From NCBI RefSeq assembly GCF_000022485.1, contig NC_012623.1:2320501-2384500 (forward strand): a stretch of DNA of 64,000 nt. Reading direction: 5' to 3'. Below are positions 3,466 to 48,774 of this stretch, piece by piece. The number at the start of each line of letters is the position of its first letter. Position 1 is the stretch's first letter. Under the pieces are notes generated by a model. That model was not told the DNA's origin, did no database searches, and was given only the letters and a program-made list of their open reading frames with translations. Source of the DNA: Sulfolobus islandicus Y.N.15.51. GTDB taxonomy: Archaea; Thermoproteota; Thermoprotei_A; Sulfolobales; Sulfolobaceae. A program made the position numbers and the translations under genes.

Positions 3466-5648
3466 TAACAGGCACATATAGGCTGCAACTAAATAATGGA
3501 TTCACTTTTTATGATGTAATAGAAAATTTGGATTACTTTAAGGAATTAGGAGTATCACACCTATACCTATCTCCAATACTTAAGGCTAGACCAAGGAGTA
3601 CTCACGGTTACGATGTAGTAGATCATAGCGAAATTAATGAGGAATTAGGAGGAGAAGAGGGATATTTTAGACTAGTTAAGGAGGCTAAGAGTAGAGGTTT
3701 AGGAATCATACAAGATATAGTACCAAATCACATGGCAGTACATCATACTAATTGGAGGCTTATGGATCTGTTAAAGAATTGGAAGAATAGTAAATATTAT
3801 AACTATTTTGATCACTATGATGAAGATAAAATTGTCCTTTCAATTCTTGAGGACGAGTTAAATATCGTTATAGATAAGGGATTGATAAAAGTACAGAAGG
3901 ATAAAATAGAGTATAGAGGACTTATATTACCGATAAACGATGAAGGAGTTGAGTTCTTGAAAAGAATTAATTGCTTTGACAATTCATGTTTAAAGAAAGA
4001 GGACATAAAGAGATTACTATTAATGCAATATTATCAGCTAACTTACTGGAAGAAAGGTTATCCAAATTATAGGAGATTTTTCGCAGTAAATGATTTGATA
4101 GCTGTTAGGGTAGAATTGGATGAAGTATTTAGAGAGTCCCATGAGATAATTGGCAAGCTACTTGTTGACGGTTTAAGAATTGACCACATAGATGGACTAT
4201 ATGACCCTAAAGAGTATTTGGATAAGCTAAGACAGTTAGTAGGAAATAACAAGATAATATACGTAGAGAAGATATTGTCAATCAACGAGAAATTAAGAGA
4301 TGATTGGAAAGTAGATGGTACTACTGGATATGATTTCTTGAACTACGTTAATATGCTATTAGTAGATGGAAATAGTGAAGAGGAGTTAACTGAGTTTTAT
4401 GAGAGTTTCATTGGAATAGAAATCAATATAGATGAGTTGATAACGCAAAGTAAAAGATTAGTCGCAAATCAGTTGTTTAAAGGCGATATTGAAAGGTTAA
4501 GCAAGTTACTAAACGTCGATTATGAATATCTGGTAGATTTTCTAGTATGTATAAAAAAGTATAGGACATATTTACCATTTGAGGATATTAGCACGATAAA
4601 GCAATGCGATAAGGAGGGAAGGTTAAGGAATGAAAAGGGAATCATGAGACTCCAACAATACATGCCAGCAATCTTCGCTAAGGGCTATGAGGATACTACC
4701 CTCTTCATCTACAATAGGTTAATCTCACTAAACGAGGTGGGGAGTGACCTAAGAAGATTCAGTATAAGCATCGAAGACTTTCATAACTTTAACCTAAGCA
4801 GAGTAAATAGTATATCAATGAACACTCTTTCCACTCATGATAGTAAATTCAGTGAAGACGTTAGAGCTAGAATATCAGTACTATCTGAGATACCAAAGGA
4901 GTGGAAGGAGAGGGTAGCATATTGGCATGATTTGTTAAAACCAAATATTGATAAAAACGATGAGTATAGATTTTATCAAACACTTGTGGGAAGTTATGAG
5001 GGATTTGATAATAGGGAGAGAATTAAGAACCACATGATTAAGGTCATAAGAGAAGCTAAGGTACATACAACATGGGAAAATCCAAATTCAGAGTATGAAA
5101 ATAAAGTTTTGGACTTCATAGATGGCGCATTTGAGAGCAGTAGTTTTAGAAATGATTTTGAAAATTTTGAAAAGAGAATAGTTTATTTCGGTTATATGAA
5201 ATCATTAGTTGCAACGACACTTAAGTTCCTTTCGCCAGGCGTACCAGATATTTATCAAGGAACTGAAGTTTGGAGATTCTTACTTACAGACCCAGATAAC
5301 AGAATGCCGGTGAATTTCAAGAAACTAAGGGAATTATTAAATAATTTGACTGAAAAGAACTTAGAACTTTCAGATCCAAGAGTCAAAATGTTGTATGTTA
5401 AGAAACTGCTACAGCTTAGAAGAGAGTACTTACTAAACGATTATAAACCATTACCCTTTGGCTTCCAAAGGGGAAAAGTAACTGTTCTTTTCTCACCAAT
5501 AGTAACTAGGGAGATTAAAGAGAAGATTAATATAAGGCAAAAAAGCGTGAATTGGATCAGAAATGAGGAAATTAGTAGTGGAGAGTACAATTTGAGTGAG
5601 TTAATTGGGGAGCATAAAGTTGTTATATTAACTGAAAAAAGTGGTTAA
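3462..5648 (+). CDS. treY: Maltooligosyltrehalose synthase TreY
   Basis: GH13 enzyme that isomerises the reducing-end alpha-1,4 bond of maltooligosaccharides to alpha,alpha-1,1, producing maltooligosyl-trehalose for TreZ. It has 728 residues, typical for archaeal TreY. The start TYRLQLNNGFTF is characteristic of the family. Visible motifs are QDIVPNHMA, DGLRIDHIDGLYDP, YVEKIL and TLSTHDSKFSEDVRAR, then PDIYQGTE in the C-terminal part. The start is fixed by the ATGA overlap with treX. The 3' end overlaps the convergent tricorn gene by four bases. Confidence 0.96.
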   Translation: MITGTYRLQLNNGFTFYDVIENLDYFKELGVSHLYLSPILKARPRSTHGYDVVDHSEINEELGGEEGYFRLVKEAKSRGLGIIQDIVPNHMAVHHTNWRLMDLLKNWKNSKYYNYFDHYDEDKIVLSILEDELNIVIDKGLIKVQKDKIEYRGLILPINDEGVEFLKRINCFDNSCLKKEDIKRLLLMQYYQLTYWKKGYPNYRRFFAVNDLIAVRVELDEVFRESHEIIGKLLVDGLRIDHIDGLYDPKEYLDKLRQLVGNNKIIYVEKILSINEKLRDDWKVDGTTGYDFLNYVNMLLVDGNSEEELTEFYESFIGIEINIDELITQSKRLVANQLFKGDIERLSKLLNVDYEYLVDFLVCIKKYRTYLPFEDISTIKQCDKEGRLRNEKGIMRLQQYMPAIFAKGYEDTTLFIYNRLISLNEVGSDLRRFSISIEDFHNFNLSRVNSISMNTLSTHDSKFSEDVRARISVLSEIPKEWKERVAYWHDLLKPNIDKNDEYRFYQTLVGSYEGFDNRERIKNHMIKVIREAKVHTTWENPNSEYENKVLDFIDGAFESSSFRNDFENFEKRIVYFGYMKSLVATTLKFLSPGVPDIYQGTEVWRFLLTDPDNRMPVNFKKLRELLNNLTEKNLELSDPRVKMLYVKKLLQLRREYLLNDYKPLPFGFQRGKVTVLFSPIVTREIKEKINIRQKSVNWIRNEEISSGEYNLSELIGEHKVVILTEKSG

Positions 5649-8600
5649 AGTTGTTTTAATGCTAACTCTATTGCCGTATCTAATTGTGTATCACTATTAC
5701 TTGCATAATCCTCTGGCTTAATCTCAACAACTATGTCTGGATCTACTCCGTAATTCTCTATACCGAAACCTACATCCTCGAAGTTAACAGCAAACTCTGG
5801 TTGACTGATATAAGTATTATCAACTAATCTATATCTGGGTCTTATACCAACAACACCTCCCCAAGTTCTTCTACCAATAAGTACTCCTAGCTTGTACTTC
5901 TTGAACAAGAATGAAAAGATATCACCATCAGACCCAGCATGTTCATTAGTTATTCCCACTAAAACCTTAGGAGATGAGAAATACGGCATAGGTATTGGTT
6001 TTCCATTCCTAGGATGAACATAGCCAACCCTCTTTAAGAGTAGCTTCTCTAAGAGTAACCCTGAGATGAAACCACCCCTATTGAACCTAACGTCAACCAC
6101 TAATCCTTCTCTGTGAAATTCGGACATGAACAATCTGTAAAACTCAGCGAACCCTTGATACATCATATCTGGTATGTGAATATACCCTAACCTACCCTTA
6201 CTCTTCTCGTGAACGTATTCCCTATTCTTCTCAACCCAGTATCTATATATTAGAAACCTTTCATCTTTTAACACTTTAACCGTAACGCGTTTATTCTTAC
6301 CGTCATTAGTTATTACGTCAAGAATTACTTGATCCTTATTTACTAGATGAGAGTAAATGTTGCCGTTAGCCTCTTCCCCATCAATAGCTTTTATACAATC
6401 TCCGACGTTCAATTGAACACCAGGATCCCTTAATGGGCTCCTCTCATTCTCATTAGTGGAATCCCCAACGTAAATTTTTGTAATCTTGTAACATTTATTG
6501 TTCTCGTTATATTCAAACTCTCCACCTAAACCACCAACTGATAACGGTTCTGGAGTATCGTAGTCGTAAGCTGTCTCATAGGAATGGGAAGTCCTAGTCT
6601 CACCTTGCATCTCTTGAATTATATCAGATAACTCGAACCTAGTACTTACCCTATCTAAAAGTCTCTCGTATTTGGGTAAGACTGAATCCCAATTCTTTAA
6701 TCTCTCCTCATTCCAATAATTCTGCTTCATCAACTTCCACGTTTCCTTAAGCATTTGTCTCCATTCCTTTTCTGGCTCTACATAAACCTTGACTCTAGAT
6801 AAATCTATTACCCCACCTTTCCTTCCAGCTGAGTTAAAATCTGGTTTAGCATTAACGTCAAATAATCTTAGATTATCCTTGAGCATTAAAAGTATTTTAC
6901 TTTTATCGCTTGACAAGGAGAAGCTTGACACATTGTCTGCGTATAATTCCTTTGCCTTATTCTCTAGGTCATAAACTTCTAACCTACCAAATACATCTCC
7001 AGTCTGTGTCCTCAGCCCCCTTATTGGATAAGAGAATAGGAAGATCTTGTTGTTCTTAGCTCCAGCTATTTGAACGTAATTTTCCTCTTCAATCGGGAAC
7101 GGAATTACTCTATCTTCAATTCCCTCGATTACGACGTTTTTATCGTTACTACTAGACTCATCTAATGGCTGGTTAAATGGGGAATAATAATTTCCTAGAA
7201 CTACTAGGTATGGCTTAACAACCCTCTGGAAACTTAAATTAAATATTACCTTATCGTTAGTTGGGTCTAAATGCCTTGCAGCCAAAAAATATAAATATCT
7301 ACCATCTGGGTCAAATGACGGTGAAAAGTCATACCCATAGGGAGTTGTTATCCTAACAATCTTCCCGTCAATGCGGGCAAGCTTTATTGATTGAGTGTAA
7401 TAGCCTTCTGGAAAAGCGTAAGCAAACCACTCACCATTTGGATGCCAATCAAATTCTAAAATTAAGTCATATTCGCTCTTATCTATTAATCTGGCGTTAT
7501 CACTATCAATCTCGTAAACCCATAACTCAAGCTTATTGTTAGATAATAATATCTTCTTACCATCTGGAGAAACCTTGACTCTCTCTATCCTAGCAAAATC
7601 CCTATTTATTACCTTCTCATTTCCATCCTTACCTAAAATCACCAATTTATCATCATCGTTTACTCCTATCACATCACCATTAGGCAAAGCTTGAATCTGC
7701 CTATATTTTACACCTTGTTTCTTGCCCAACTGAACTGCGGGGCCATCCCACGGCCTCATTAAAAATGCCTTACCCCTACTTGTTAATGCTATATAATTAC
7801 CATTTACAACAGCCTCATTCATGTATTCTATCACACTAACGAATTTCGGTTGCCTCTTCTTCCTATCAGTAGGTAAGTCAATATCCAGTTTAGATAAGCT
7901 GTCCTTTTCTGGATCGTACAAATATATATCACCAGCGTTTTGAAAAACAATCCTCTTACCATCGCTATTTGCATTCCTACAATAGAAATCGGTGAAGTTG
8001 GTATGCCTCCTTAAATCCTTACCGTTCAAATCAACTGAATAAAGATTACCAACCCCTTCATGATTGGATAGAAAGTAAACCCTTTCTTTAACTATCATGG
8101 GCCAACTAACGTTACCATCTAAACTAACAAACTTCTCGAAGGTTTTACCACCATCACGGGAAATCCATAATTCACCCTTAGTTCCACCCTTATACCCTTT
8201 CCAATTTGGTAAATCTTGATAACCCCTTACAATTACTATTACATTATCCCTTTTTACAATATTGGATAACATGCCGAAAGGCAATTTCTCTGTCTCTCCG
8301 TTATTCACATCTGCCTTATACGCCTCATTCCATTGACCAAAAGGAGTGTGAAAGTCAGTTATTACAATAATCTCGTCCTCTGAAAGCCAATTAGCAACCC
8401 TACTATTCCTACTACCAAAATAAGTAACCCTCCTAGCTTGCCCATCTTCAACAACGTAAATATCTCCACCTTGCTTACCACTCTTAAGCCAAACAACAGT
8501 AAACGCAACTTTTCTACCACTTGGACTTATTTTAGGCCTTATGGAAACTCCTAAACCACTTGTTATCCTAAGCGGCTTCATGTCTTTTAAAGAAAGAAGC

Positions 8601-12352: not shown

Positions 12353-12945
12353 AAAGTCACTTAGTGATTAGAAATAATGTCGTACAGAGCAGTGGTGTTC
12401 TAGGCGCTATACAAATAGGAGATAAGATGATAGTACTAACTAACCCCTCAGAAGTATTGGCTAATAACGACGAGTTAACATTTGACATTAATGTAAGGGG
12501 AAAGATACTCACTGATCAAGCGTATACTAAGGTTTTGAGTAGCTCCAATGTGAAAATAAGTGTCAACATGGAGATGGAGGATTCCTCTTACTTCCCTCAT
12601 CCCGTTCTATTCTACAATAATGCCAATTTTGAAATGGTCACTGAAATAAGGAGTAAAGGTAAGAATAGTGTTGTTGAAGCCTTCATTCTGGGTAGAAGAG
12701 GAAGTGGAGAGAAGTTCGTTAAGGGTAAGATTAACGCCATTACTAAGATATATTCTGAACACGGTTTGATAGCATATGATGTGTTTAGGGTAAACGATGA
12801 GGATTACCTCGACCTTATAGGTAATGATGCCTTGCTTACAGTTTATTATATTGAGGATGGCGAATTGGCATCGTTTACTAGGGAGATTTTGAGTTATAAA
12901 GATGTCTTTAAGGAGTGGAGTAAAATAACGGGAATATGGTTTTAA
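12349..12945 (+). CDS. ureD: Urease accessory protein UreD/UreH-like
   Basis: A 198-residue protein following ureG' with a TTG start overlapping its stop. Features seen are [20 protein letters not shown] near the N-terminus, then [11 protein letters not shown] (the family's TQSxTKV-like segment) and [15 protein letters not shown], consistent with UreD, the scaffold that delivers UreG and UreF to apo-urease. It is shorter than most bacterial UreD proteins but comparable with compact archaeal ones. With ureG beheaded and no urease genes nearby it is probably an orphan on its way to decay. Confidence 0.7.
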
Positions 12946-12991
12946 CTTGAGTCTAAATCTTTTTGTCCCTCCGTTTAAATTACTAATAATA

Positions 12992-13126
12992 ATGAGCATT
13001 GACATAAAGATTATAGAAGAGACGTTGAAAAGGGCAAATGAGATTATGGATTGGCATGTAGATCCATTAAGTAAGGAACCAGCTTATAAGATGTTAAAGG
13101 CTTCGATTAGAAAATTTCCTTATTGA
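12992..13126 (+). CDS. Possible 44-residue small protein
   Basis: An ATG preceded by a TATA-like CGTTTAAATT stretch at about -18 opens a 44-codon frame. It reads MSIDIKIIEETLKRANEIMD and ends near ASIRKFPY. It is amphipathic helical in character. No family is recognised. It could be an intact microprotein or the start of a lost gene, since decayed sequence follows. Confidence 0.35.
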   Translation: MSIDIKIIEETLKRANEIMDWHVDPLSKEPAYKMLKASIRKFPY

Positions 13127-13360
13127 GTGTATGATTCCATTAGAGCTTTTTAACCATGATAGTTTATTTTCTCTTAATGTTATTATGCCTTTAGTGATAC
13201 ATTAAGAGCTTTTTAATATATCTACTTTAACTACCAGTAAAATAAGGGAACTGTAAATGACAAATAAAAGATGATAAGAAATAATGAAAGGAACCCTTTT
13301 TAATTGATTAATAGATAGAAAGAATTGGGGAAGAAATATAATAGAAGAAATAAGAAATAA

Positions 13361-13528
13361 ACTCTTACAAAAAGTGACATAAATATTGTTAAACAAACCA
13401 TATCTACACTAGATAGATATGGGGAAGAAATAACTAAAAGAATGTACAATATACTCTTTACAAAATATCCAGAATTAAAAGAATTATTTAGAAATACATC
13501 GCCAGATCAACATAAGAAATTAGCCTAA
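13361..13528 (+). pseudogene. Globin (flavohaemoglobin-type) N-terminal relic
   Basis: An open frame without a start codon translates to LTKSDINIVKQTISTLDRYG, then EEITKRMYNILFTKYPELK, then ELFRNTSPDQHKKLA before a stop. The HGEEIT-like, FY.xLF and HPEL.xLFN-type pattern is the A-to-C helix region of bacterial single-domain globins and flavohaemoglobins. The rest of the haem pocket is absent. It lies in a decayed stretch between the urease relic and vapB. I recognise the family by motif; no database comparison was made. Confidence 0.6.
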
Positions 13529-13623
13529 AGTCCATACTATCCCGTTAAAGGAAGTGTATTAGTAAATATTAAATGAACTTGTCAATTGATGATAGTGCTT
13601 TTGACGTGGTTAGCATGTAGTAG

Positions 13624-38227: not shown

Positions 38228-39166
38228 TTACCCCTCCGTATATTTCTTTATCCTATTGAGGAAATCTTGATCTTTCTCTTTATATAATAATGCATATGCA
38301 CCGTCAGTAGGGTCTAGACCAGCCTCCCCTTCTTCCGTTTGTCCCATATTCCATATTACCTCTTCAAGTAGTCTCTTAGGATCCTTGTATACCTCTTCAG
38401 TAAACTGTATCATCCCCTCAAGTACTCTTTGTGTGTAAGTCCTTCTTCCAGCATATCTATCTGGTTCTTGATCAAAAATCCATAAGCATGCTGGACTATC
38501 AAACGTATATATCTTTCCCTTGTACTCTTTTAAGTAGATTCTTAAGTACTTTCCGTTTACAGGTGCTTGTATTGGTACCTGACAAACTGTACATAAATGT
38601 ACTGCAGTTAATGGTAATGGTATTTGTCCATCAATTATCTTCTTTATGTATAAGTCCCAAACTCTTCCGAAAAACTTCTCCCAGTGTGGGTATTTCTCGT
38701 TTAACCATTTTCTCTCATCAGGCGTTGGACCTCTAAATGCGACATTTAGAGTCCTTCTCCACGTATATAATCCTATAATAAAGTTATGATGCCAATGATC
38801 TAACTCTAATTCAAACCACTGCCAGTACCAAGGTAATCTTATCCCATAATCTTCTAGTAATCTCTTAAATTGGGCACCTACCCATTCTGTTATAAACTCC
38901 TTGTACGACATTATTCTAGCGTCTAGTGGAGTGAGGTAATCCATAGAAACTCCAGTTAATGCTCCTATTAGCCTAAGGGATAGCCAGAATCCTTTCGCTA
39001 TTAAATATTCTCCTGCCTCTTTATATGCTGGACCTTTTTCTCTCATTCTAACAGCAAATTCAACAGTGTTTCTATAATTTTTCATTAGTCCTTCTGAGAC
39101 ATTAGATAAGGCTTGCTTGACCTCTCCCCTAGTTTGACCTAAACCTCCCTCTCTACTCATCATCAT
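38228..39166 (-). CDS. Monooxygenase hydroxylase alpha subunit, C-terminal half as a separate protein
   Basis: A 312-residue protein matching the second half of TmoA-type alpha subunits. The WFELELDHWHHNFIIGLYTWRR helix is followed by a Cys-containing CTVCQVPIQAPVNG and the SPACLWIFDQEPDRYAGRR (YHS-like) segment near the end. No diiron ligands are in this half. It has its own ATG run (MMMSREGG), its own TATA box and two copies of the island operator. It is separated from the N-terminal half by 138 non-coding bases, so the split is a real two-gene arrangement. Confidence 0.85.
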   Translation of the reverse strand: MMMSREGGLGQTRGEVKQALSNVSEGLMKNYRNTVEFAVRMREKGPAYKEAGEYLIAKGFWLSLRLIGALTGVSMDYLTPLDARIMSYKEFITEWVGAQFKRLLEDYGIRLPWYWQWFELELDHWHHNFIIGLYTWRRTLNVAFRGPTPDERKWLNEKYPHWEKFFGRVWDLYIKKIIDGQIPLPLTAVHLCTVCQVPIQAPVNGKYLRIYLKEYKGKIYTFDSPACLWIFDQEPDRYAGRRTYTQRVLEGMIQFTEEVYKDPKRLLEEVIWNMGQTEEGEAGLDPTDGAYALLYKEKDQDFLNRIKKYTEG

Positions 39167-39199
39167 TTAGTCTTTTTTATACTTTTTAAGAATTGTTCT

Positions 39200-39207
39200 A
39201 ACAAGTT
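39200..39207. promoter_or_regulatory. Island operator AACAAGTT (alpha C-part, distal to start is next site)
   Basis: This site lies just upstream of a TATA box (about 39182-39192) for the gene ending at 38228. It pairs with the site at 39213-39220, centre-to-centre 13 bases. Confidence 0.7.
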
Positions 39208-39212
39208 TGATA

Positions 39213-39220
39213 AACATGTT
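39213..39220. promoter_or_regulatory. Island operator AACATGTT (alpha C-part, second site)
   Basis: This is a perfect palindrome within AAACATGTTT, tandem with the site at 39200-39207. It is the only promoter in the island with two sites. Confidence 0.7.
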
Positions 39221-39304
39221 TACAGTTTATAGTTTTTAAATCCTACTCATATGAGGTGTCTTTAAAAAGAGTAAGGTACAAAGGAAAAAAATTAAAAAAA
39301 TAAA

Positions 39305-40111
39305 TTAAATTTTCTTTTTCATCTCTTCATTCAACTTTGTCACGTCAACAAAGGTCTTTAGAACTGGGTGCCCTATTTGTGCGTGCCTAGATTCATCAGT
39401 CTGTATACTCTGAGTTGTTGAGGAAAACACGAAATCATTAGTCTTATTTGCCATTGCGGCATATGCTACAAATTGTAAATTGGTAAATCCAGTCTCAAAT
39501 GCAAAGGTAGTCATTAAGGCGAATTCTATTGCATTAGTCCCAGTAATAGTATCATCAAAGAACGATCTAGCTGCTATTGGTAACCAGCCGTCAACCCAGA
39601 ACATCTTATGTGCATAGGCGAACTTAGGACTAGCTTGTATACTATCATGAGATAATAAGATTTGCACTTGTGCGTGTCTTACCTCATCCATAGAACCGAA
39701 TGTGGATAAGTTTCTCCATTCACCGGCTTTCCCAAACCTCGCCATCCTTGCTTCTGCTATAGACGCAGTATATTCTGGTATAGGAACCGCAGTTATATGG
39801 AAACAGAAGGAGCCTTGATGATATGTCTTATCCAATTTCTTTACTAACTCTGCTCTTACTCCAGCCTCTCTTACCGAGAAAAGTCTTTGATCTTTCTCCT
39901 TTTGATTCTTTACATACTCCCTATATGTCACCTTATAGGGGGCATCATATAACTCGGCCCATACGTCTATCGGTAAATTCGGTATTCCACTCATATCTAC
40001 TGGAAATAGTTCTTCTTCTTTTACGTATTTCGGTGCCCACTCTAGCTTGTTCGCTAAATCATAATACTCATCTCTTGATGGTAGTTTAGGTTCTGCAGGA
40101 ACTGGTTTCAT
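39305..40111 (-). CDS. Monooxygenase hydroxylase alpha subunit, N-terminal diiron half
   Basis: A 268-residue protein containing the full diiron site of a bacterial multicomponent monooxygenase. Helix pairs are SIAEARMARF (Glu), MDEVRHAQV (Glu, His), FAFETGFTN (Glu) and TDESRHAQIG (Glu, His). The product hydroxylates aromatics such as toluene or phenol with oxygen. It ends after NEEMKKKI and the rest of the usual 500-residue subunit is encoded by the next gene. A TATA box (about 40131-40142) gives a leaderless start, with the island operator immediately upstream. Confidence 0.9.
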   Translation of the reverse strand: MKPVPAEPKLPSRDEYYDLANKLEWAPKYVKEEELFPVDMSGIPNLPIDVWAELYDAPYKVTYREYVKNQKEKDQRLFSVREAGVRAELVKKLDKTYHQGSFCFHITAVPIPEYTASIAEARMARFGKAGEWRNLSTFGSMDEVRHAQVQILLSHDSIQASPKFAYAHKMFWVDGWLPIAARSFFDDTITGTNAIEFALMTTFAFETGFTNLQFVAYAAMANKTNDFVFSSTTQSIQTDESRHAQIGHPVLKTFVDVTKLNEEMKKKI

Positions 40112-40150
40112 AAGTAGGTGTGTATCATTCGTATATAAAAATAATTCTTA

Positions 40151-40158
40151 AACATGTT
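40151..40158. promoter_or_regulatory. Island operator AACATGTT (alpha N-part operon)
   Basis: The site lies directly upstream of the TATA box (ATTTTTATATAC, about 40131-40142) of the monooxygenase operon. Confidence 0.7.
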
Positions 40159-40187
40159 CGAAAAAAGAAGTAACTTTATCCCCACAC

Positions 40188-41402
<1,215 letters not shown>

Positions 41403-41449
41403 CTTGATCTAGATTCAAAAACGGTAAAAAGTAATATTAAGCTTAATCT

Positions 41450-41457
41450 AACAAGTT
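41450..41457. promoter_or_regulatory. Island operator AACAAGTT (ferredoxin reductase)
   Basis: It is located upstream of the TATA-like CTTAATATT (about 41433-41441) of the reductase gene starting at 41402. Confidence 0.65.
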
Positions 41458-41579
41458 TGATGTATAGAGATTTTGAACTTAAAAAATCCTTGTGTTATTT
41501 AAAAAATAGAAGATGAAGTTTAAACCATCCTTGTACATTTTATATCTACATCAAATAGTTTATCTAATATTTTACAAAA

Positions 41580-41999
41580 TTATGATTCCAATTTTTTAAG
41601 AGCATTCTTGGCAATTTCCATATCTTGTTCCGCAGATCCGCCAGATATTCCTATTCCTCCTATTACTTGCCCTTTATAGACTATAGGAAATCCTCCACCG
41701 AAGATTATCAACCTAGGTATTTTAGGAAATCCCATTGCCAGTGGGGGGTTGTCTCTAAGCATGTTGTACCACTCGTGTGTTGGTATACCAAAACTTACCG
41801 CAGTCCACGCTTTATCTATGGCTATCTCTATGGTTAAGATTGGTGCACCGTCCATTCTCTTAAAAGCCTTCAACTCTCCTCCTTCATCTACTATTGCTAT
41901 AGAAACCTTCACTCCTAGCTCTTTAGCCTTCTTTACTGCCTCACTTATTAACATATCTGCTAATTCGTCTGATATACCTAACTTATTTAGCACATTCAT
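41580..41999 (-). CDS. GlcG/HbpS (DUF336) family protein
   Basis: A 139-residue protein of the HbpS/GlcG fold: KVSIAIVDEGGELKAFKRMD, then ELA-like IDKAWTAVSFG, and the glycine-rich IGGIGISGGSAEQDMEIAK ending. Family members bind haem or cobalamin or occur in aromatic-degradation operons with unknown function. It is divergent from the dioxygenase gene and shares one operator with it. Confidence 0.8.
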   Translation of the reverse strand: MNVLNKLGISDELADMLISEAVKKAKELGVKVSIAIVDEGGELKAFKRMDGAPILTIEIAIDKAWTAVSFGIPTHEWYNMLRDNPPLAMGFPKIPRLIIFGGGFPIVYKGQVIGGIGISGGSAEQDMEIAKNALKKLES

Positions 42000-42040
42000 G
42001 AATACTATCTAAATATAAGGTTGAATTAAGCTATACATAA

Positions 42041-42048
42041 AACTTGTT
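42041..42048. promoter_or_regulatory. Island operator AACTTGTT (dioxygenase and HbpS, divergent)
   Basis: It lies between divergent genes, seven bases upstream of the dioxygenase TATA box (42056-42066). It is also suitably placed upstream of a TATA-like GCTTAATTC for the HbpS gene. Confidence 0.7.
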
Positions 42049-42103
42049 TGAGTAGATTTTTTAATATGACAGAAAAAGAAGGAAAATAAGGTGAGTGTTA
42101 AAA

Positions 42104-43111
42104 ATGGTAAATAAGTTACTTTCCCAACTAGCTAGCGTAGAAATTCTAACGCCTAAAATCGACGATACATTATGGTTTTTCAAGGACATTTTGGGATTAT
42201 ATGAAGTTGGAAAGAAGGGTAAGTCAGTGTACCTAAGGGGTTGGGAAGATTGGTACACGTATAGTTTAAAGGTTACTGAATCTGATACCGCTGGGGTAAA
42301 GGAGATTGTATGGAGAACCTGTAGTGAAAAAGATCTAATTGATGCTATAAATATAGTAAACTCTAATGGATTAGGATTGGGATGGGATGAAGGAGAGCCA
42401 GATATGGGAATAGGAAGAGGTTACAAATTTATCTTGCCCAGTGGTCAAATTGGTAAACTTGTATGGGAAATGAAAACGTGGCGAGCTTCAGGTGAACTTA
42501 GATCGGGATATAAAGCTAGGCCTATGAAAAAGCCTACTAAAGGAGTTCAAGCAAAGGATCTGTCTCATATATTTATTTTCGCCTATAACGATGGAGCTCT
42601 TGCTAAGACCGTAGAGTTGTTGAAGAAGCTCACATTTAAAGTAAATGAAATATTGAAGGAAGGTGATAAGAAAATTGCGTATTGGATGGCAGTCAACGGT
42701 ACAGCACACGATTTAGCAATTGGTCTAGATCCTTCTGGAGTTCCGGCTAGACTAAACCATGTTACGTTTAATGTGGATTATTCAGATGACATACTTAGGG
42801 CTGCGGACTTTTACACTGATTACGGATTGGAAATTGTAGGAGGTCCTTTAAGACACGGCATAACAGATAGCAATTCACTTTATGTAAAAGAGCCTGGTGG
42901 TAACTTAATTGAAGTGTTGCATGGCGGTTACCTTAATGTTGTACCAGATTGGGAGCCAGTAGTATGGGATACTAACGAGGATGGAGACAGATGGTTATAT
43001 TATTGGGGACATGTAAAAGAAGCGTTCTGGCATGGTAGTCCCATTCCAGCTACTAGGATTAGTGACGAGTTAAAGGAGATAGTCAGACAGAAATTAGGAG
43101 CAAAAATCTAA
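42104..43111 (+). CDS. Extradiol ring-cleavage dioxygenase (catechol 2,3-dioxygenase type)
   Basis: A two-domain vicinal-oxygen-chelate enzyme of 335 residues. Metal ligands are His in KDLSHIFIFA, His in ARLNHVTFNVD and Glu in GGNLIEVLHGG. It would open catechols made from phenol or toluene by the monooxygenase. I choose the ATG at 42104: an AAGGTGAG ribosome site precedes it, and the TATA box at 42056-42066 predicts a short leader. The GTG at 42095 lies within that site. The island operator is directly upstream of the TATA box. Confidence 0.9.
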   Translation: MVNKLLSQLASVEILTPKIDDTLWFFKDILGLYEVGKKGKSVYLRGWEDWYTYSLKVTESDTAGVKEIVWRTCSEKDLIDAINIVNSNGLGLGWDEGEPDMGIGRGYKFILPSGQIGKLVWEMKTWRASGELRSGYKARPMKKPTKGVQAKDLSHIFIFAYNDGALAKTVELLKKLTFKVNEILKEGDKKIAYWMAVNGTAHDLAIGLDPSGVPARLNHVTFNVDYSDDILRAADFYTDYGLEIVGGPLRHGITDSNSLYVKEPGGNLIEVLHGGYLNVVPDWEPVVWDTNEDGDRWLYYWGHVKEAFWHGSPIPATRISDELKEIVRQKLGAKI

Positions 43112-43177
43112 TAATAGTTCAAATTATTATTTTTTTAACATAAATATGTTATCTTAAAAAATATCATATCTTTATAT

Positions 43178-43999
43178 TTATTTTAGATTTAGAGAGATTG
43201 CTTCTTCAATTTTCTTACTTATTAGTTGAGTAGTAGTTACTTTGAAATATAGTGTATAATGGTAACCGCCAATGGTTCTCTCAATTTCGAGCAAGTTAAC
43301 TTCATCATTAACGTATCCGCCTAACTCCACATTAGCTTTTCCCTTCCATATTTCTCCATATTTGGTCTCATCCCTAACTCTACTTACTATTTCGTATAGG
43401 TCAACTTCACCCTCACCCCTGCTTGGGAATCTCCTTATATTTAAGAATGGCCCGAAGTTTTTAAGAGGCAGCGACTCAGTCCTCTCCTCTAATTCGACTT
43501 GCATTCTAAACATTACACCTCCTCCCCTTACAGCATATCCTCCCATCTTTAGTCCTCTCTCTGGTTTATTGTACTTTGGAAGCAGATGGTGTAATTTAGT
43601 CATGGCAATTTTAGCTATTTTCTTCGGATATCCATCTAACCAACCTCTTACCAATGCCCAATCCTTATCTACCCACATGAATGGGAAATACAAGTAATTC
43701 TTTCCCTCAAAGTTGACCTTTAACCCAATAGCTCCCTCCATGTATTGTACTAAATCTGGATCTTGATACATGTAGTCCCAATTGTCCTCTGAGGTGGAAA
43801 TAAATTCGGCAATGTAAACCCAACCTTCACCGTCAGTTGATAGGAATCTTGGAATTACCTTTTCTGCAGATTCCTTAGTGAACTTTATATGAGCTCCAAT
43901 ATAGGTAACTCCATAATACCATGGCGGTTGAAATACAATTTGTGATTTGCCATTATTCGTGGGGGGTAAGGTGAAATTGGAGTTGTTATTTTTTGTCAT
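43178..43999 (-). CDS. Acetoacetate decarboxylase-fold protein
   Basis: A 273-residue ADC-superfamily protein. The [23 protein letters not shown] segment matches the region around the Schiff-base Lys of ADC. The start [18 protein letters not shown] and the [13 protein letters not shown] part also fit. In this island it may act on a ring-cleavage product as decarboxylase or hydratase. A longer frame begins at 44077, but the operator and a TATA box (about 44022-44030) lie inside that extension and predict a leaderless start at the ATG at 43999. Confidence 0.8.
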
Positions 44000-44040
44000 G
44001 GTTACTTCTACTTCTAGCCTAGTAAATAAGCATTCCATTA

Positions 44041-44048
44041 AACTTGTT
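44041..44048. promoter_or_regulatory. Island operator AACTTGTT (ADC-fold gene)
   Basis: It lies upstream of the TATA-like GCTTATTTACT for the start at 43999. Its position inside the longer open frame argues that the extension is not translated. Confidence 0.65.
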
Positions 44049-44087
44049 TCATGTTTTCCTATTTCACTTAAAAACATATCTCACTAA

Positions 44088-44888
44088 TTATTTCGAAATC
44101 CTAGATAGGATCTTTGTTCCTAATTGCTTAAATGACCAATTGAAGTAATACCCACCCTCAATCTTGTTTATCTTCAAAACTTCAAGCTCCTCATTTATTG
44201 AACCGTTTAATATCACCTCTCCTTCACCTCTCCACACCTCGCTAACTCTAAAGTCTGAGGAGATTACTTGTCCTAGCTCGTAAACATCTGTACCATCTTG
44301 GACAGCTGGGAATCTCCTAAATTGCACTATGGGATCAAAGGGTATTGGGGATTGCGAGACTTTTTCTCTTAGCGTTATTTTGATTCTTATTATCTCCTTA
44401 CCGTTCCTTAACGCATATCCTCCCATCTTTACGCCACTAGAAGGACCACTGTAACCGTCTAGAAGTTTATGAAATTCTGACATTGATATATAAGCTAATT
44501 TTTTAGGATAACCTAACAGCCACCCACGAATTAGCGGTAGATCTTTATTAACCCACATGAATGGGAAATAGGTGTAAATGTTACCATTATACTTGACCTT
44601 TAGGGCCACCGCAGCCTCCATGTACTTAGTCTCTTCAGGGTCTTCATACAACATCTCCCATCTATTTCCACTTACTGTGAAAATCTTAGCAACATATACA
44701 AATCCTTAGCCATCTACTATTTCCAATGGAGGAGATATTAAATCTAGAACTTTACCGAGATCAAAATGGACTTTTACCCCTATCATTTCTATTGCGTATA
44801 TCCATGGTGGAGGTGGAACTATTTGAGACTTGCCCGATTTAGTTGTTGGTAAACTAAATGTGCTATAATAAGGACGTGTTTCTTCCAT
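44088..44888 (-). pseudogene. Second acetoacetate decarboxylase-fold gene with one in-frame stop
   Basis: The frame is homologous throughout to the neighbour at 43178-43999 (SGKSQIVPPPPWIYAIEMIG; FMWVNKDLPLIRGWLLGYPKK). A single TAA at 44706-44708 falls where the paralogue has Glu (DGEGWVY versus DG-stop-GFVY). The same frame continues, so no indel occurred. It is probably an inactivating GAA-to-TAA change. An intact product would have 266 residues. The promoter with island operator and TATA box is preserved. Confidence 0.85.
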
Positions 44889-44926
44889 ATTGTTTTTTCT
44901 TTCCCTAGGTTAATAACCCTTTATAA

Positions 44927-44934
44927 AACATGTT
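44927..44934. promoter_or_regulatory. Island operator AACATGTT (ADC-fold pseudogene)
   Basis: It abuts the TATA box TTTATAAAG for the gene starting at 44888. The promoter is intact although the gene has a stop. Confidence 0.7.
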
Positions 44935-44956
44935 TCACATTAGAAAAGGGAAAAAT

Positions 44957-46042
44957 TTAGCTAAACTTATTAATAATAATTCTTCCTGCATTTTTGTACT
45001 CGCTCATTTCCTTGTAGGCATCATTGACATCATAGATGCTTATAGTCTTGTACGTAACTGGATCTAGATTAATCTTTCCTTCTTTCATTAATTTAAATAT
45101 TGTATCGAATTTTTGAGCTGGTAACATTAATACTCCTTGTATTCTGATTTCCCTTGCTACCACTAAATCTGCTGGCAATGGAAAAGTCTCTTTCCCCTTC
45201 ATCATAAGCCCCGCTAATAGTAATGTCCCATGCACTCTAAGGAGAGGTAAAAACGGTATGACAGCCTCTGGAATTCCTGTAGTATCATACACTACGTCCA
45301 CTGAACCATACTTCTTCATAATATCCTCTACTATTTCATTCAATTCTTCAGACTTACCAGAATATTTATAAGTCTCAATGCTACCTAATATTTTAGCTTT
45401 CTCTAAAGATCGTTCGTTAACGTCTACAGCTATTACTTTAGCACCAAGAGCGTTAGCTATTACTATACCACTCAAACCCATCCCTCCTGCTCCGATTGTG
45501 ACCACCATGTCACCGGGCTTTAAATTAGTCTTCATTGTAAACGCGTTCCATGAAGTTCCAAAACCACAAGAACTTAGAGCAGCCCACTCTGGCTTTATTC
45601 CATCTGGTACTTTAACTAGATCAATTGCTGACCTCTCTGGGACTAACATGTACTCAGCAAAGCACCCATTAATTCCATAACCAGCTATTACCAAGTGATC
45701 ACAAACATTTGAATCTCCTTCCATACAGTATTTGCATGTCCTATTATCTCCGGTAGAAGAAGCAGGCATGACTACCTTATCTCCATTTTTCAATTTAGCT
45801 ACACTCTCTCCGACCTCTACGACTTCTCCATAAACCTCATGACCTTGAGTTATTGGTAACTTACCACCACTCCACTGCATATATGCTACCAAAGCAGGAT
45901 CTCCACGCCATAGATGCCAATCTGATCTACATATTCCACAGCTTATCACTTTTAGAAGCACATCTCCTTTTCCAACTTTAGGAACTTCGAGATCCTCTAT
46001 CTTCAGAGGCTTTTGAAATTCCACTAATCTAGCTGCCTTCAT
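44957..46042 (-). CDS. Zinc-dependent alcohol dehydrogenase of the aromatic island
   Basis: A medium-chain dehydrogenase of 361 residues, distinct from the ADH at 24.9 kb. Catalytic zinc ligands are in SCGICRSDWHLWRG and TQGHEVYGEV. Structural zinc cysteines are in NRTCKYCMEGDSNVCDH. The NAD site is VTIGAGGMGLSGIVIANAL. It may oxidise aromatic or short-chain alcohols. ATG at 46042 is preferred over the TTG at 46045 since a TATA box (46063-46071) places the transcript start there. Confidence 0.88.
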   Translation of the reverse strand: MKAARLVEFQKPLKIEDLEVPKVGKGDVLLKVISCGICRSDWHLWRGDPALVAYMQWSGGKLPITQGHEVYGEVVEVGESVAKLKNGDKVVMPASSTGDNRTCKYCMEGDSNVCDHLVIAGYGINGCFAEYMLVPERSAIDLVKVPDGIKPEWAALSSCGFGTSWNAFTMKTNLKPGDMVVTIGAGGMGLSGIVIANALGAKVIAVDVNERSLEKAKILGSIETYKYSGKSEELNEIVEDIMKKYGSVDVVYDTTGIPEAVIPFLPLLRVHGTLLLAGLMMKGKETFPLPADLVVAREIRIQGVLMLPAQKFDTIFKLMKEGKINLDPVTYKTISIYDVNDAYKEMSEYKNAGRIIINKFS

Positions 46043-46081
46043 CAATAGAGATTTTATCTTACTACTAATATGGATTTCTCT

Positions 46082-46089
46082 AACATGTT
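46082..46089. promoter_or_regulatory. Island operator AACATGTT (alcohol dehydrogenase)
   Basis: It lies upstream of the TATA-like CCATATTAG (46063-46071) for the start at 46042. Confidence 0.65.
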
Positions 46090-46217
46090 TGATATGATAA
46101 ATAAAGTAAATTAGATTAATGAATTGATTTAAATCTCAATGAGTACCCCATTAATGTTTTTAAATAGAAACTTAATTTACTATGAAGAATTTGCTGGATT
46201 CCGTAATTTAAGATAGG

Positions 46218-46245
46218 GTGGCTTGTAATAAGTGGCTTGTAATAA
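46218..46245 (+). repeat. Two tandem 14-bp direct repeats upstream of the BAT-type regulator
   Basis: GTGGCTTGTAATAA occurs twice back to back, ending at the TATA-like AGTTTAAAAATT (46246-46257). Direct repeats abutting the TATA box suggest a binding site for an activator or for the regulator itself. It differs from the palindromic operator of the target genes. Confidence 0.6.
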
Positions 46246-46289
46246 AGTTTAAAAATTATTATCAGAAATTAGTATTATAGGTAAAATGT

Positions 46290-46976
46290 ATGAATGACAG
46301 ACTATTGGAAATTACGTTTTCAGTTGAACATGAGAACTGTTGGACTAATCTAGTTGGTAAATACATTGTGAAAACTTTGAGATTTTCTGTAGATACTGAG
46401 AGGAACTCTATTAGGTCCCTAATCGTTGTGGATAAAAAATACAAGGATTTAATGAATAAGATAAAGAGAAATAATAGTTTCATTGGATACTCATCAATTT
46501 CTCTCACAAATGACAATAAAAAAATACTTTTTGATTTCAGAAAGAGGTACAAAAATAGTGTAATGGACATTATAAACTCCGTAGATGGGATAATCTTAGA
46601 TGGATTTAAGTATGATGGAAAGGAATATTGGCGAATTTTATTGTATGAAAGTTACATTAATGAATTAAGGGAGAAGCTTAGGTCTAAAGGGAATGTGGAG
46701 TTTATTGGCTTTCACGAATTAAATGTAACTGAGGACGAACTGACTCCATATGAACTTAAAACTTTAATTTTGGCTTATAAAAATGGCTATTTTGATTTTC
46801 CCAGGAGAATTAAGTCTGATAAAGTATCTAAATTGATAAATATAAGTAAATCCACTTTCACGTACCATTTAAGATCAGCTGAGTCGAGAATAATTAAACG
46901 ATATATTGACGACCTAAAATTCTACAATGTAATTAACAACATATCGCAGCAAGAAGAGGAAAGAAAGGATAGCTAA
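46290..46976 (+). CDS. BAT-type (HTH_10) transcriptional regulator
   Basis: A 228-residue protein. Its C-terminal segment LTPYELKTLILAYKNGYFDF followed by SKLINISKSTFTYHLRSAE is the bacterio-opsin-activator HTH_10 domain. The N-terminal 150 residues are a ligand-sensing-like domain with no clear motif. It lies inside the aromatic island, divergent from the alcohol dehydrogenase gene, and is the only regulator there. It is the best candidate to bind the AAC(A/T)(A/T)GTT operators. Because those sites sit upstream of TATA boxes, activation is more likely than repression. Confidence 0.85.
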   Translation: MNDRLLEITFSVEHENCWTNLVGKYIVKTLRFSVDTERNSIRSLIVVDKKYKDLMNKIKRNNSFIGYSSISLTNDNKKILFDFRKRYKNSVMDIINSVDGIILDGFKYDGKEYWRILLYESYINELREKLRSKGNVEFIGFHELNVTEDELTPYELKTLILAYKNGYFDFPRRIKSDKVSKLINISKSTFTYHLRSAESRIIKRYIDDLKFYNVINNISQQEEERKDS

Positions 46977-47001
46977 AAAAGAAGAAGGGTAAAAATTAAT
47001 T

Positions 47002-48480
47002 TTACCATCTTGTTATTACTACCTTTTTATCTGTGAAGAAATCTACGCTATCTATTTGCCCATGCAGTACGCCAAAGAAGGATTCCTTTCTGCCTCCAAA
47101 TGGAAAGAACGCCATTGGCGCAGCTACACCTATATTAATGCCTATATTTCCGGCGTTGACCTCACGCCTGAACTTTCTAGCATAATAACCACTTGTGGTA
47201 AATATTGATGACGCATTACCATAATTGCTCTTGTTTATAATATCTATTGCCTCATCTAAACTTCTTAGATGAATTATTGACGCTACTGGTCCAAATATCT
47301 CCTCCCTTGCTATCGTCATTTCCGGTGTCACTTCATCAAATATAGTTGGACCCAGAAAATATCCATTGGGATAGTCAAGTACTTTTGCTTCCCTACCATC
47401 TAACAATAGTTTTGCTCCTTCTTCTATACCCTTATCTATATATCCTATTATCCTCTTTTTAGCTTCTTTTGTAACAACTGGGCCCATGTCTACACTTTCA
47501 TCCAAACCGTAACCTATCTTTAATTGTTTTGAAGCCTCTATGAACTTCCTCTTAACATCGTCATAAATATTACCTACTGCTACTAAATTAGCAGCTGCTA
47601 AACATCTTTGCCCTGCATTGCCAAAGAACGCTGAGATAACAGAGGGTATTGTCTTATTTAAATCAGCATCTGGCATTACTACGACAAAGTTCTTAGCTCC
47701 TGCTTGAACAATGGCCTTCTTACCGCTCTTCCCTGCATTTTCATAAATGTACTTTCCTACTCTCGTCGAACCTACGAATGTTACACCTTGGATTAATTTA
47801 TTCGTAAGGAACTCGTCAACTACATCCTTAGCACCGTGAACGACATTTACAACACCTCTAGGTAACTTGACCTCGTCAAAAATTTTAATAATAAAATCCA
47901 TTGGTACTGGAGTTATTTCAGAAGGCTTAATAACCACCGTATTTCCTAAAACTATTGCAAATGGTAAGTACCAGAAGGGAACCATTGTTGGGAAATTGAA
48001 TGGAGTTATAATTCCAAAAACTCCTAAAGGTTCCCTAACAACGGTTTCATCAATATCTTGAGATACTTGATCTAGATGTTCACCCTTATATAAAGTGTAA
48101 GCAACACTTATTGCAGCCTCAACGTTTTCTATAGTTCTCCTCATATCCCCTCTGGCCTCTTGGATGGTCTTTCCGTGGTTTTGAACTATTATCCTAGCTA
48201 TTGTTTCTGAATACTCCTCTAACTTATTCTTAAGCGCGAAGAGGTATTGTATTCTAGTAGTTATTGGGACTTCTCTCCACTTCTCAAATGCCTCTTGAGC
48301 TGATTGTATAGCCTCTCTAACTTCATCTTTAGCTGAGAATGGGACTTCAGCAATAACTTCATCTTTAGCTGGATTATATGCCTTACCTATTGTATCAGTT
48401 TTAGAATCTACAAGCTCACCGTTTATATATAGCTTCAGCCTTCCATAATTCTCCTTTACCTCTTCCAATACCCTACCCAT
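47002..48480 (-). CDS. CoA-acylating type (methylmalonate-semialdehyde) aldehyde dehydrogenase
   Basis: An ALDH of 492 residues from the proposed start. The nucleophile is in NAGQRCLAAANLV. AGAKNF replaces the usual ELGGK, so the general-base Glu is missing, as in methylmalonate-semialdehyde dehydrogenases that transfer the acyl group to CoA. Other segments are TPFNFPTMVPFWYLPFAI and FVGSTRVGKYIYE. It may handle aldehydes from ring cleavage. The frame opens at 48525, but that ATG lies within the island operator. A TATA box (about 48501-48513) points to a leaderless start at the ATG at 48480. Confidence 0.88.
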   Translation of the reverse strand: MGRVLEEVKENYGRLKLYINGELVDSKTDTIGKAYNPAKDEVIAEVPFSAKDEVREAIQSAQEAFEKWREVPITTRIQYLFALKNKLEEYSETIARIIVQNHGKTIQEARGDMRRTIENVEAAISVAYTLYKGEHLDQVSQDIDETVVREPLGVFGIITPFNFPTMVPFWYLPFAIVLGNTVVIKPSEITPVPMDFIIKIFDEVKLPRGVVNVVHGAKDVVDEFLTNKLIQGVTFVGSTRVGKYIYENAGKSGKKAIVQAGAKNFVVVMPDADLNKTIPSVISAFFGNAGQRCLAAANLVAVGNIYDDVKRKFIEASKQLKIGYGLDESVDMGPVVTKEAKKRIIGYIDKGIEEGAKLLLDGREAKVLDYPNGYFLGPTIFDEVTPEMTIAREEIFGPVASIIHLRSLDEAIDIINKSNYGNASSIFTTSGYYARKFRREVNAGNIGINIGVAAPMAFFPFGGRKESFFGVLHGQIDSVDFFTDKKVVITRW

Positions 48481-48520
48481 AGGTAATTCAAAATGATGAG
48501 TCGTTAATATATCTCTTTCA

Positions 48521-48528
48521 AACATGTT
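48521..48528. promoter_or_regulatory. Island operator AACATGTT (aldehyde dehydrogenase)
   Basis: It overlaps the ATG at 48525 and lies directly upstream of the TATA-like GATATATTAAC. This supports translation from 48480 instead. Confidence 0.65.
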
Positions 48529-48774
48529 TCAAACAGATAATGAAAAGATTATGTATAGTGACTTCTCTTTAAGCAAAAAATAAAAGATAATTCTAAATCC
48601 TTGACCTTGTTATGTATTTCTTTTCAAACTCTCCAATCTATAGTAAATACCATTGTGATTAAATAAAGAATTCAATAAAGTGTTTGTAATGAGAACTATA
48701 AAAGATAATTAACAGTAGCCATTGGAATAAATTTGAATTTTTACCATAAATCACTAGTTTATCATATTACAAGA

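What the first reader, a model, noticed from the sequence alone, without database searches (positions are those of the whole stretch)
39200..48528. A shared palindromic operator defines an aromatic-degradation regulon
Nine copies of AAC(A/T)(A/T)GTT (mostly within AAAC..GTT(T/A)) lie at 39200, 39213, 40151, 41450, 42041, 44041, 44927, 46082 and 48521. Each is immediately upstream of the TATA box of a gene in the monooxygenase/extradiol dioxygenase island, covering every transcription unit from the alpha C-part to the aldehyde dehydrogenase. The fixed position upstream of TATA points to an activator. The BAT/HTH_10 regulator at 46290-46976 is the only regulator in the island. An eight-base motif this degenerate should occur by chance about once per several kb, so nine in under 1 kb of promoter DNA is striking.
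Basis: partly seen in the sequence, partly recalled or inferred. Interest (0 to 1): 0.82.

Follow-up and report, generated by a model that had tools for sequence, protein, structure and literature searches.

The report
Archaeal aromatic-degradation genes sharing Ara-box-like switches
In this heat-loving archaeon every promoter in a phenol/toluene-degradation gene island carries the same short DNA palindrome at the same distance from the TATA box, very probably the landing site of the activator encoded inside the island; the palindrome turns out to be a version of the 'Ara-box' already known from the sugar genes of these organisms.

Summary
All nine AACWWGTT copies are where stated. Eight of them form 14-bp palindromes (TNRAACWWGTTWNA) with a TATA box at one fixed spacing, and they serve nine promoters; the box at 39213 lacks these features and is not conserved. 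Genome-wide the 8-mer occurs once per 7.9 kb. The 14-mer plus spaced TATA has 14 genome hits against 1 in a reversed control; ten of the 14 lie in the island. In orthologous islands of two congeners and one other genus with rearranged gene order the box is kept at every comparable promoter. In the other genus its AAC and GTT bases are 48/48 identical while flanking DNA is 38-52% identical. Orthologues of these genes are induced 10-384-fold by phenol in S. solfataricus (PMC7820114). Its activator XylR (saci_2116) is also an HTH_10 protein, so the island regulator (46290-46976) is a paralogue of a proven Ara-box activator. Because pentose genes of this genome carry the same 8-mer, the 8-mer alone does not define an aromatic regulon; the outer T...A pair may. 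Best reading: an HTH_10 activator switching on the meta-cleavage regulon. Binding, inducer and cross-talk are untested.

The parts
39197..39210 (-). operator of tmoA C-part (38228-39166); TATA block 39183-39188
   Evidence: 14-mer TCAAACTTGTTAGA; conserved in G136, G146, G119
39213..39220 (.). extra AACATGTT, probably not an operator
   Evidence: no outer T...A, no TATA at +12, absent from G136/G146 islands
40148..40161 (-). operator of tmoA N-part (39305-40111); TATA block 40134-40139
   Evidence: TCGAACATGTTTAA; conserved in G136, G146, G119
41447..41460 (-). operator of ferredoxin reductase (40188-41402); TATA block 41433-41438
   Evidence: TCAAACTTGTTAGA; conserved in G136, G146
42038..42051 (.). 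bidirectional operator shared by HbpS-like gene (41580-41999, -) and catechol 2,3-dioxygenase (42104-43111, +); TATA blocks 42024-42029 and 42060-42065
   Evidence: TAAAACTTGTTTGA; same divergent arrangement in G136, G146 and G119
44038..44051 (-). operator of acetoacetate-decarboxylase-like gene 1 (probable start about 43999); TATA block 44024-44029
   Evidence: TGAAACAAGTTTAA; conserved in G136, G146, and in G119 at another chromosomal place
44924..44937 (-). operator of acetoacetate-decarboxylase-like gene 2 (44088-44888); TATA block 44910-44915
   Evidence: TGAAACATGTTTTA; conserved in G136, G146; G119 has ACAAACAAGTTTTA
46079..46092 (-). operator of Zn alcohol dehydrogenase (44957-46045); TATA block 46065-46070
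   Evidence: TCAAACATGTTAGA; conserved in G136, G146, G119
48518..48531 (-). operator of aldehyde dehydrogenase (start probably 48480); TATA block 48504-48509
   Evidence: TGAAACATGTTTGA; conserved in G136, G146, G119
46290..46976 (+). HTH_10 (bacterio-opsin-activator-like) regulator, 228 aa, proposed activator; SSO1219 by position (inferred)
   Evidence: PF04967 E=8.8e-21; orthologues 92, 89 and 63% identical in the three other islands; model: two beta-alpha-beta-beta-alpha-beta repeats + C-terminal HTH, pLDDT 77.8
38228..39166 (-). monooxygenase alpha C-part (YHS domain), first gene of the unit running down to at least 36060
   Evidence: S. solfataricus Sso1228, 384-fold on phenol (PMC7820114)
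39305..40111 (-). monooxygenase alpha N-part (Phenol_Hydrox)
   Evidence: Sso1227 73-fold
42104..43111 (+). catechol 2,3-dioxygenase-like extradiol dioxygenase
   Evidence: Glyoxalase/dioxygenase superfamily; Sso1223 31-fold; mRNA only on phenol in strain 98/2 (PMC3859572)
47002..48480 (-). aldehyde dehydrogenase
   Evidence: Sso1218 382-fold

Best explanation
The boxes are operators of the Ara-box type. The HTH_10 protein encoded in the island (46290-46976), whose own gene is not preceded by the box, probably binds the 14-bp palindrome TNRAACWWGTTWNA as a dimer when an aromatic substrate or intermediate is present. From its fixed place, with the box centred about 18 bp upstream of the TATA block, it would help recruit TBP/TFB/RNA polymerase, so that all meta-cleavage units (monooxygenase, reductase, extradiol dioxygenase, aldehyde and alcohol dehydrogenases, ADC-like genes, and in trans a fumarylacetoacetate-hydrolase-family gene like Sso2941) are switched on together. 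Shown here: motif, spacing, conservation, co-occurrence with the regulator, kinship of regulator and XylR. Published for S. solfataricus orthologues: phenol induction. Inferred: that this protein binds, that it activates, and the ligand.
For: (1) Eight operators at nine promoters with identical spacing. (2) In island G119 (other genus, genes split over three places and reordered) all 8 comparable promoters keep the box: AAC/GTT 48/48 bases identical, flanks 38-52%. (3) The 14-mer + spaced TATA exceeds its reversed control clearly in the four genomes holding a >=63% orthologue of the regulator (14 v 1, 18 v 2, 13 v 1, 10 v 3) and not in most of those without it (2 v 6, 6 v 5, 6 v 7, 8 v 2, 3 v 0, 2 v 1). 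(4) AACATGTT is the Ara-box; mutating it or deleting XylR abolishes activation (PMC7264815). XylR is an HTH_10 protein: one search hit at G042 1.937 Mb; place next to the CUT2 transporter and 54.6-54.9% identity to the other orthologues. (5) Orthologous genes are phenol-induced 10-384-fold in S. solfataricus P2, some with p above 0.01. (6) The FAH gene with Sso2941-like neighbourhood (88-fold on phenol), far from the island, carries a box with the same spacing in own, G136 and G146.
Against: No binding or expression data for this regulator. Other HTH_10 proteins (11 full or partial in this genome) could bind the same box; in G131 an ADC1 orthologue has TCAAACTTGTTTGA although the best match to the island regulator there is only 35% identical, with a hydroxyphenylacetate-type HTH_10 in the neighbourhood. 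The 44% relative in G084 has no such boxes around it. The FAH box has core TA, as at the hydroxyphenylacetate transporter promoter, so it may belong to that regulator.
Confidence: 0.74

Rival explanations
1. The island belongs to the pentose (XylR) regulon, or XylR and the island regulator both act on it, because the boxes are Ara-boxes.
For: Same 8-mer and similar TATA spacing at 2,5-dioxopentanoate dehydrogenase/KDA dehydratase, arabinose dehydrogenase/arabinonate dehydratase and a sugar-binding-protein gene of this genome.
Against: xylR of this genome is broken into three reading frames while the boxes remain intact. The outer T...A is present in 10/10 aromatic-type promoters of this genome, but in 1 of 5 pentose boxes looked at. 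The main-text table of phenol-induced genes lists no pentose genes. A genome with XylR but no island shows no marked excess of the 14-mer (G042, 3 v 0).
Confidence: 0.1
2. A different HTH_10 paralogue (the hydroxyphenylacetate-type, C1:1644571-1645203) or several paralogues jointly control the island.
For: Its neighbouring MFS promoter carries TTAAACTAGTTTAA with the same TATA spacing, conserved in G136, G146, G050 and G042; recognition helices are alike (KSTFTYHLRSAE v KVTFLYHLRNAQ).
Against: Island boxes never have core TA; the island regulator is kept next to the island in four genomes, including one rearranged; the paralogue is also present in genomes without any island.
Confidence: 0.09
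3. The box is a general strong-promoter element (BRE-like or upstream element), not a regulator's operator.
For: Fixed spacing to TATA.
Against: Outside the island only 4 hits of the 14-mer + TATA pattern in the genome, although a genome of this size must hold many hundreds of promoters; palindromic, unlike BRE, which lies directly at TATA; published Ara-box is inducer- and XylR-dependent.
Confidence: 0.04
4. The box binds a repressor, released by phenol.
For: Regulation of the orthologues is inducible; palindromic operator.
Against: The place upstream of TATA/BRE leaves TBP/TFB sites free; the closest proven relative is an activator.
Confidence: 0.03

Closest known systems
Ara-box / XylR (saci_2116) pentose regulon of Sulfolobales (PMC7264815; Brouns 2006 and Peng 2009 as cited there)
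   Same: Core AACATGTT palindrome upstream of TATA at similar spacing; divergent genes sharing one box; regulator of the same HTH_10 family
   Different: Regulator only 22% identical and in another clade; core AACATGTT or AACTTGTT here; outer bases T...A instead of mostly G/C pairs in the pentose boxes; aromatic instead of sugar genes
Phenol meta-cleavage cluster Sso1218-Sso1234 of Saccharolobus solfataricus (PMC7820114, PMC3859572)
   Same: Same genes: ALDH, ADH, two ADC-like, C23O, reductase, split tmoA, tmoB-E; inducible by phenol
   Different: The words regulator, promoter, HTH and Ara-box do not occur in PMC7820114; here operator and candidate activator are proposed
Bacterio-opsin activator (Bat)/HTH_10 proteins of haloarchaea (PF04967; from general knowledge)
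   Same: C-terminal HTH_10 domain; local activators
   Different: No PAS/GAF sensor found by Pfam; N-terminal part modelled as two ferredoxin-like repeats

Membership tests
HTH_10 regulators (PF04967) | HTH_10 domain over curated cut-off | tested here: met
   73.9 bits v cut-off 23.1, residues 151-203
XylR orthologues | Orthology to saci_2116 (about 50% identity between genera) | tested here: not met
   22% identity; separate clade; the own-genome xylR orthologue is elsewhere and frameshifted
Ara-box | AACATGTT core | tested here: inconclusive
   exact in 4 of 8 operators (40151, 44927, 46082, 48521); the other four have AACTTGTT/AACAAGTT
Ara-box | Place just upstream of TATA | tested here: met
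   A/T block at +12..+17 in 9/9 promoters
Ara-box | Required for induction by arabinose/xylose through XylR | not testable with these tools
   needs a reporter assay
Phenol-inducible regulon | Orthologues induced on phenol | tested here: met
   published RNA-seq in S. solfataricus P2, PMC7820114; orthology by gene content and order, not by reciprocal search
Regulator-operator pair | Direct binding and dependence | not testable with these tools
   only co-occurrence shown

The most novel reading that the evidence does not exclude
HTH_10 paralogues of Sulfolobales read one common operator architecture, a 14-bp palindrome TN(A)AACWWGTT(T)NA at fixed distance from TATA. By changing the central WW and the outer base pair after gene duplication they split it into separate pentose, phenol and hydroxyphenylacetate regulons: an archaeal family-wide operator code with built-in or avoided cross-talk, of which the Ara-box is only one case.
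Probability: 0.4. Interest if true: 0.68.

Novelty: new variant of a known kind. Interest (0 to 1): 0.57.

Why it matters
Phenol and toluene degradation in hot acid is strongly induced, but I found no named regulator for it in the papers I could search. This gives a precise operator, a candidate activator, a predicted member in trans and single-base tests. It also turns the Ara-box, widely used in Sulfolobus expression vectors as a pentose element, into one member of a family of operators, so cross-talk between carbon-source promoters becomes testable.

Tried and rejected
Window ADH as the Ara-box gene SSO1300/D-arabinose dehydrogenase: recalled link dropped; best solved matches are other alcohol dehydrogenases and the AraDH-like gene lies elsewhere (L091). 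HTH_10 paralogue L007 in the pentose cluster as XylR: rejected, 21% identical to saci_2116; the true orthologue is the frameshifted gene at C1:488939-489616. Lrp-like neighbour in S. acidocaldarius as XylR: rejected, best own-genome match 36% and it does not fit the gene count from saci_2120. Chance: rejected by shuffles and footprinting. Fold search for the sensor domain: only weak matches (5m86 TM 0.43; the rest look spurious). Naming the relatives through genome contigs: two scans found nothing. Not tested: whether the phenol-induced Sso1120-1135 heterodisulfide reductase cluster carries a box.
Full report
Observation. All nine AACWWGTT sequences are present at the given positions. In the window there are 22 matches against 7.65 in shuffles; in the genome (window = C1:2320501-2384500 of a 2.85-Mb genome) 360, one per 7.9 kb, against 279 for the reversed pattern. 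Nine in 39200-48528 compares with 1.2 expected (P about 4e-6). Oriented by gene, eight boxes show one layout: box, then an A/T-only block at +12 to +15, nearly always to +17. The box at 42041 serves two divergent promoters, catechol 2,3-dioxygenase and an HbpS-like gene. Upstream segments of all nine units contain box + 11 nt + WWWW; shuffled segments give 0.05 on average and never more than 2. The box at 39213 is an exception (no TATA spacing, no outer T...A, not conserved) and should be dropped.

Over 34 promoters of four genomes the invariant pattern is T-N-R-AAC-WW-GTT-W-N-A, with T at -10 and A at +3 in 34/34; adding the remaining G119 promoters gives one exception at T. TNRAACWWGTTWNA-N8-WWWWW has 14 matches in this genome against 1 for the reversed control; ten are strand-matches within the island (nine real promoters and one antisense), four lie elsewhere.

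Conservation. Islands with an orthologous regulator exist in two congeners (G136 92%, G146 89%) and in one species of another genus (G119, 63%). In the congeners every one of the promoters keeps the box, including the shared divergent one. In G119 the genes are rearranged into three places, yet all eight promoters that can be compared have the box: AAC and GTT 48/48 identical, upstream flank 43%, spacer 52%, downstream 38% identical. Central WW varies (69%), as expected of a palindrome core that tolerates A/T. In genomes without a close orthologue of the regulator the full pattern is mostly at background level: 2 v 6, 6 v 5, 6 v 7, 8 v 2, 3 v 0, 2 v 1.

What it is. AACATGTT is the Ara-box of Sulfolobales, required for arabinose/xylose induction, with XylR (saci_2116) as its activator (PMC7264815). 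That paper does not place XylR in a Pfam family in the passages read. Here G042 has a single contig of 2,225,959 bp, the size I recall for S. acidocaldarius DSM 639. In it the gene four positions beyond the CUT2 pentose-transporter ATPase, that is saci_2116 by count, encodes a 231-aa HTH_10 protein. Its orthologues in G136 and G146 are 54.6-54.9% identical, matching the 'around 50%' of the paper. So the island regulator, an HTH_10 protein, is a paralogue (22% identical) of the one activator proven to work through this motif. Pentose genes of the same genome carry Ara-boxes with similar spacing: 2,5-dioxopentanoate dehydrogenase and 2-keto-3-deoxyarabinonate dehydratase (sharing one box), an arabinose-dehydrogenase/arabinonate-dehydratase pair, and a sugar-binding protein. 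These gene names rest on sequence reading and neighbourhood, not on a family search. A second paralogue, next to a hydroxyphenylacetate-type cluster (C1:1644571-1645203), goes with TTAAACTAGTTTAA before its neighbouring transporter gene, and a near-identical box stands there in five genomes.

Function. In S. solfataricus P2 the orthologous genes are induced on phenol: Sso1228 384-fold, Sso1218 382, Sso1220 346, Sso1229 163, Sso1221/1222 77-82, Sso1227 73, Sso1223 31, Sso1225 9.7; Sso1223, 1225 and 1227 had p above 0.01 (PMC7820114). In strain 98/2 the dioxygenase mRNA is seen only on phenol (PMC3859572). The strongest induced catabolic gene outside the cluster, Sso2941 (88-fold, FAH family), has a neighbour Sso2942 annotated as a glyceraldehyde dehydrogenase large chain. 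The own-genome FAH gene with that kind of neighbour (C1:312419-313279) carries a box at the same spacing, AACTAGTT in own and G136, AACTTGTT in G146. It was sought because of the published induction and supports a regulon member in trans, with the caveat that its TA core resembles the hydroxyphenylacetate box. The identification with Sso2941 rests on family and neighbourhood.

Mechanism proposed: an HTH_10 dimer, whose gene lacks the box, binds the 14-mer when an aromatic ligand is present and aids TBP/TFB/RNAP at the TATA about 18 bp downstream of the box centre. The AlphaFold2 model (pLDDT 77.8, pTM 0.59) shows two beta-alpha-beta-beta-alpha-beta repeats before the HTH, a fold type used by ligand-sensing domains; H14, W18 and E112 are invariant in 15 family members. 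The PDB fold search gave only weak matches. Ligand and dimerisation are guesses.

What separates aromatic from pentose control? In this genome the outer T...A is in 10/10 aromatic-type promoters; of five pentose boxes looked at (own/G146 KDAD-DOPDH, S. acidocaldarius KDAD-DOPDH, AraDH, binding protein, S. acidocaldarius xylF) only xylF has both. The comparison was made after the fact and the pentose sample is small. Also, xylR of this genome is split over three reading frames, so the island boxes are unlikely to be kept by XylR here, unless the frameshifts are assembly errors.

Verdict. Direct binding remains to be shown.

Noticed in passing
G000:C1:488939-489616 (L090 about 12940-13617, - strand): The XylR orthologue of this genome is split over three reading frames (85-97% identical pieces), while G136 and G146 have intact genes: pseudogene or assembly error.
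   Followed up: partly
window 44706-44708: ADC-like gene 2 has an in-frame TAG at codon 61, otherwise 86% identical to the intact 267-aa G146 protein; the G136 copy is interrupted by an insertion (L078 about 7172-8566). It is broken independently in two relatives.
   Followed up: partly
L078:4737-5863: In G136 a transposase-like ORF (4768-5781) lies between the alcohol dehydrogenase operator and its gene, about 1.1 kb apart.
   Followed up: no
L222:4572-9812 (G000:C1:1644571-1649811): Hydroxyphenylacetate-type cluster (MFS, flavin reductase, extradiol dioxygenase, HpaB-like) with its own HTH_10 regulator and a TTAAACTAGTTTAA box; a similar box stands before the orthologous MFS gene in G042 (L223:8822).
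   Followed up: partly
L083:3920-9273 (S. acidocaldarius-like G042): Rieske ring-hydroxylating dioxygenase cluster with an HTH_10 regulator 36% identical to the island's and an AACATGTT box before a nearby alcohol dehydrogenase (5011): possible further paralogue regulon.
   Followed up: no
G000:C1:291215-291241 (L018): 14-mer with core TA and TATA spacing before a 267-aa gene (reads like an XdhC/CoxI-type protein), kept in G136 (C1:2672803): possible extra regulon member.
   Followed up: no
window 38228-40111: The monooxygenase alpha subunit is encoded as two separate genes (N- and C-part), each with its own operator and TATA; same in G136, G146 and G119.
   Followed up: partly
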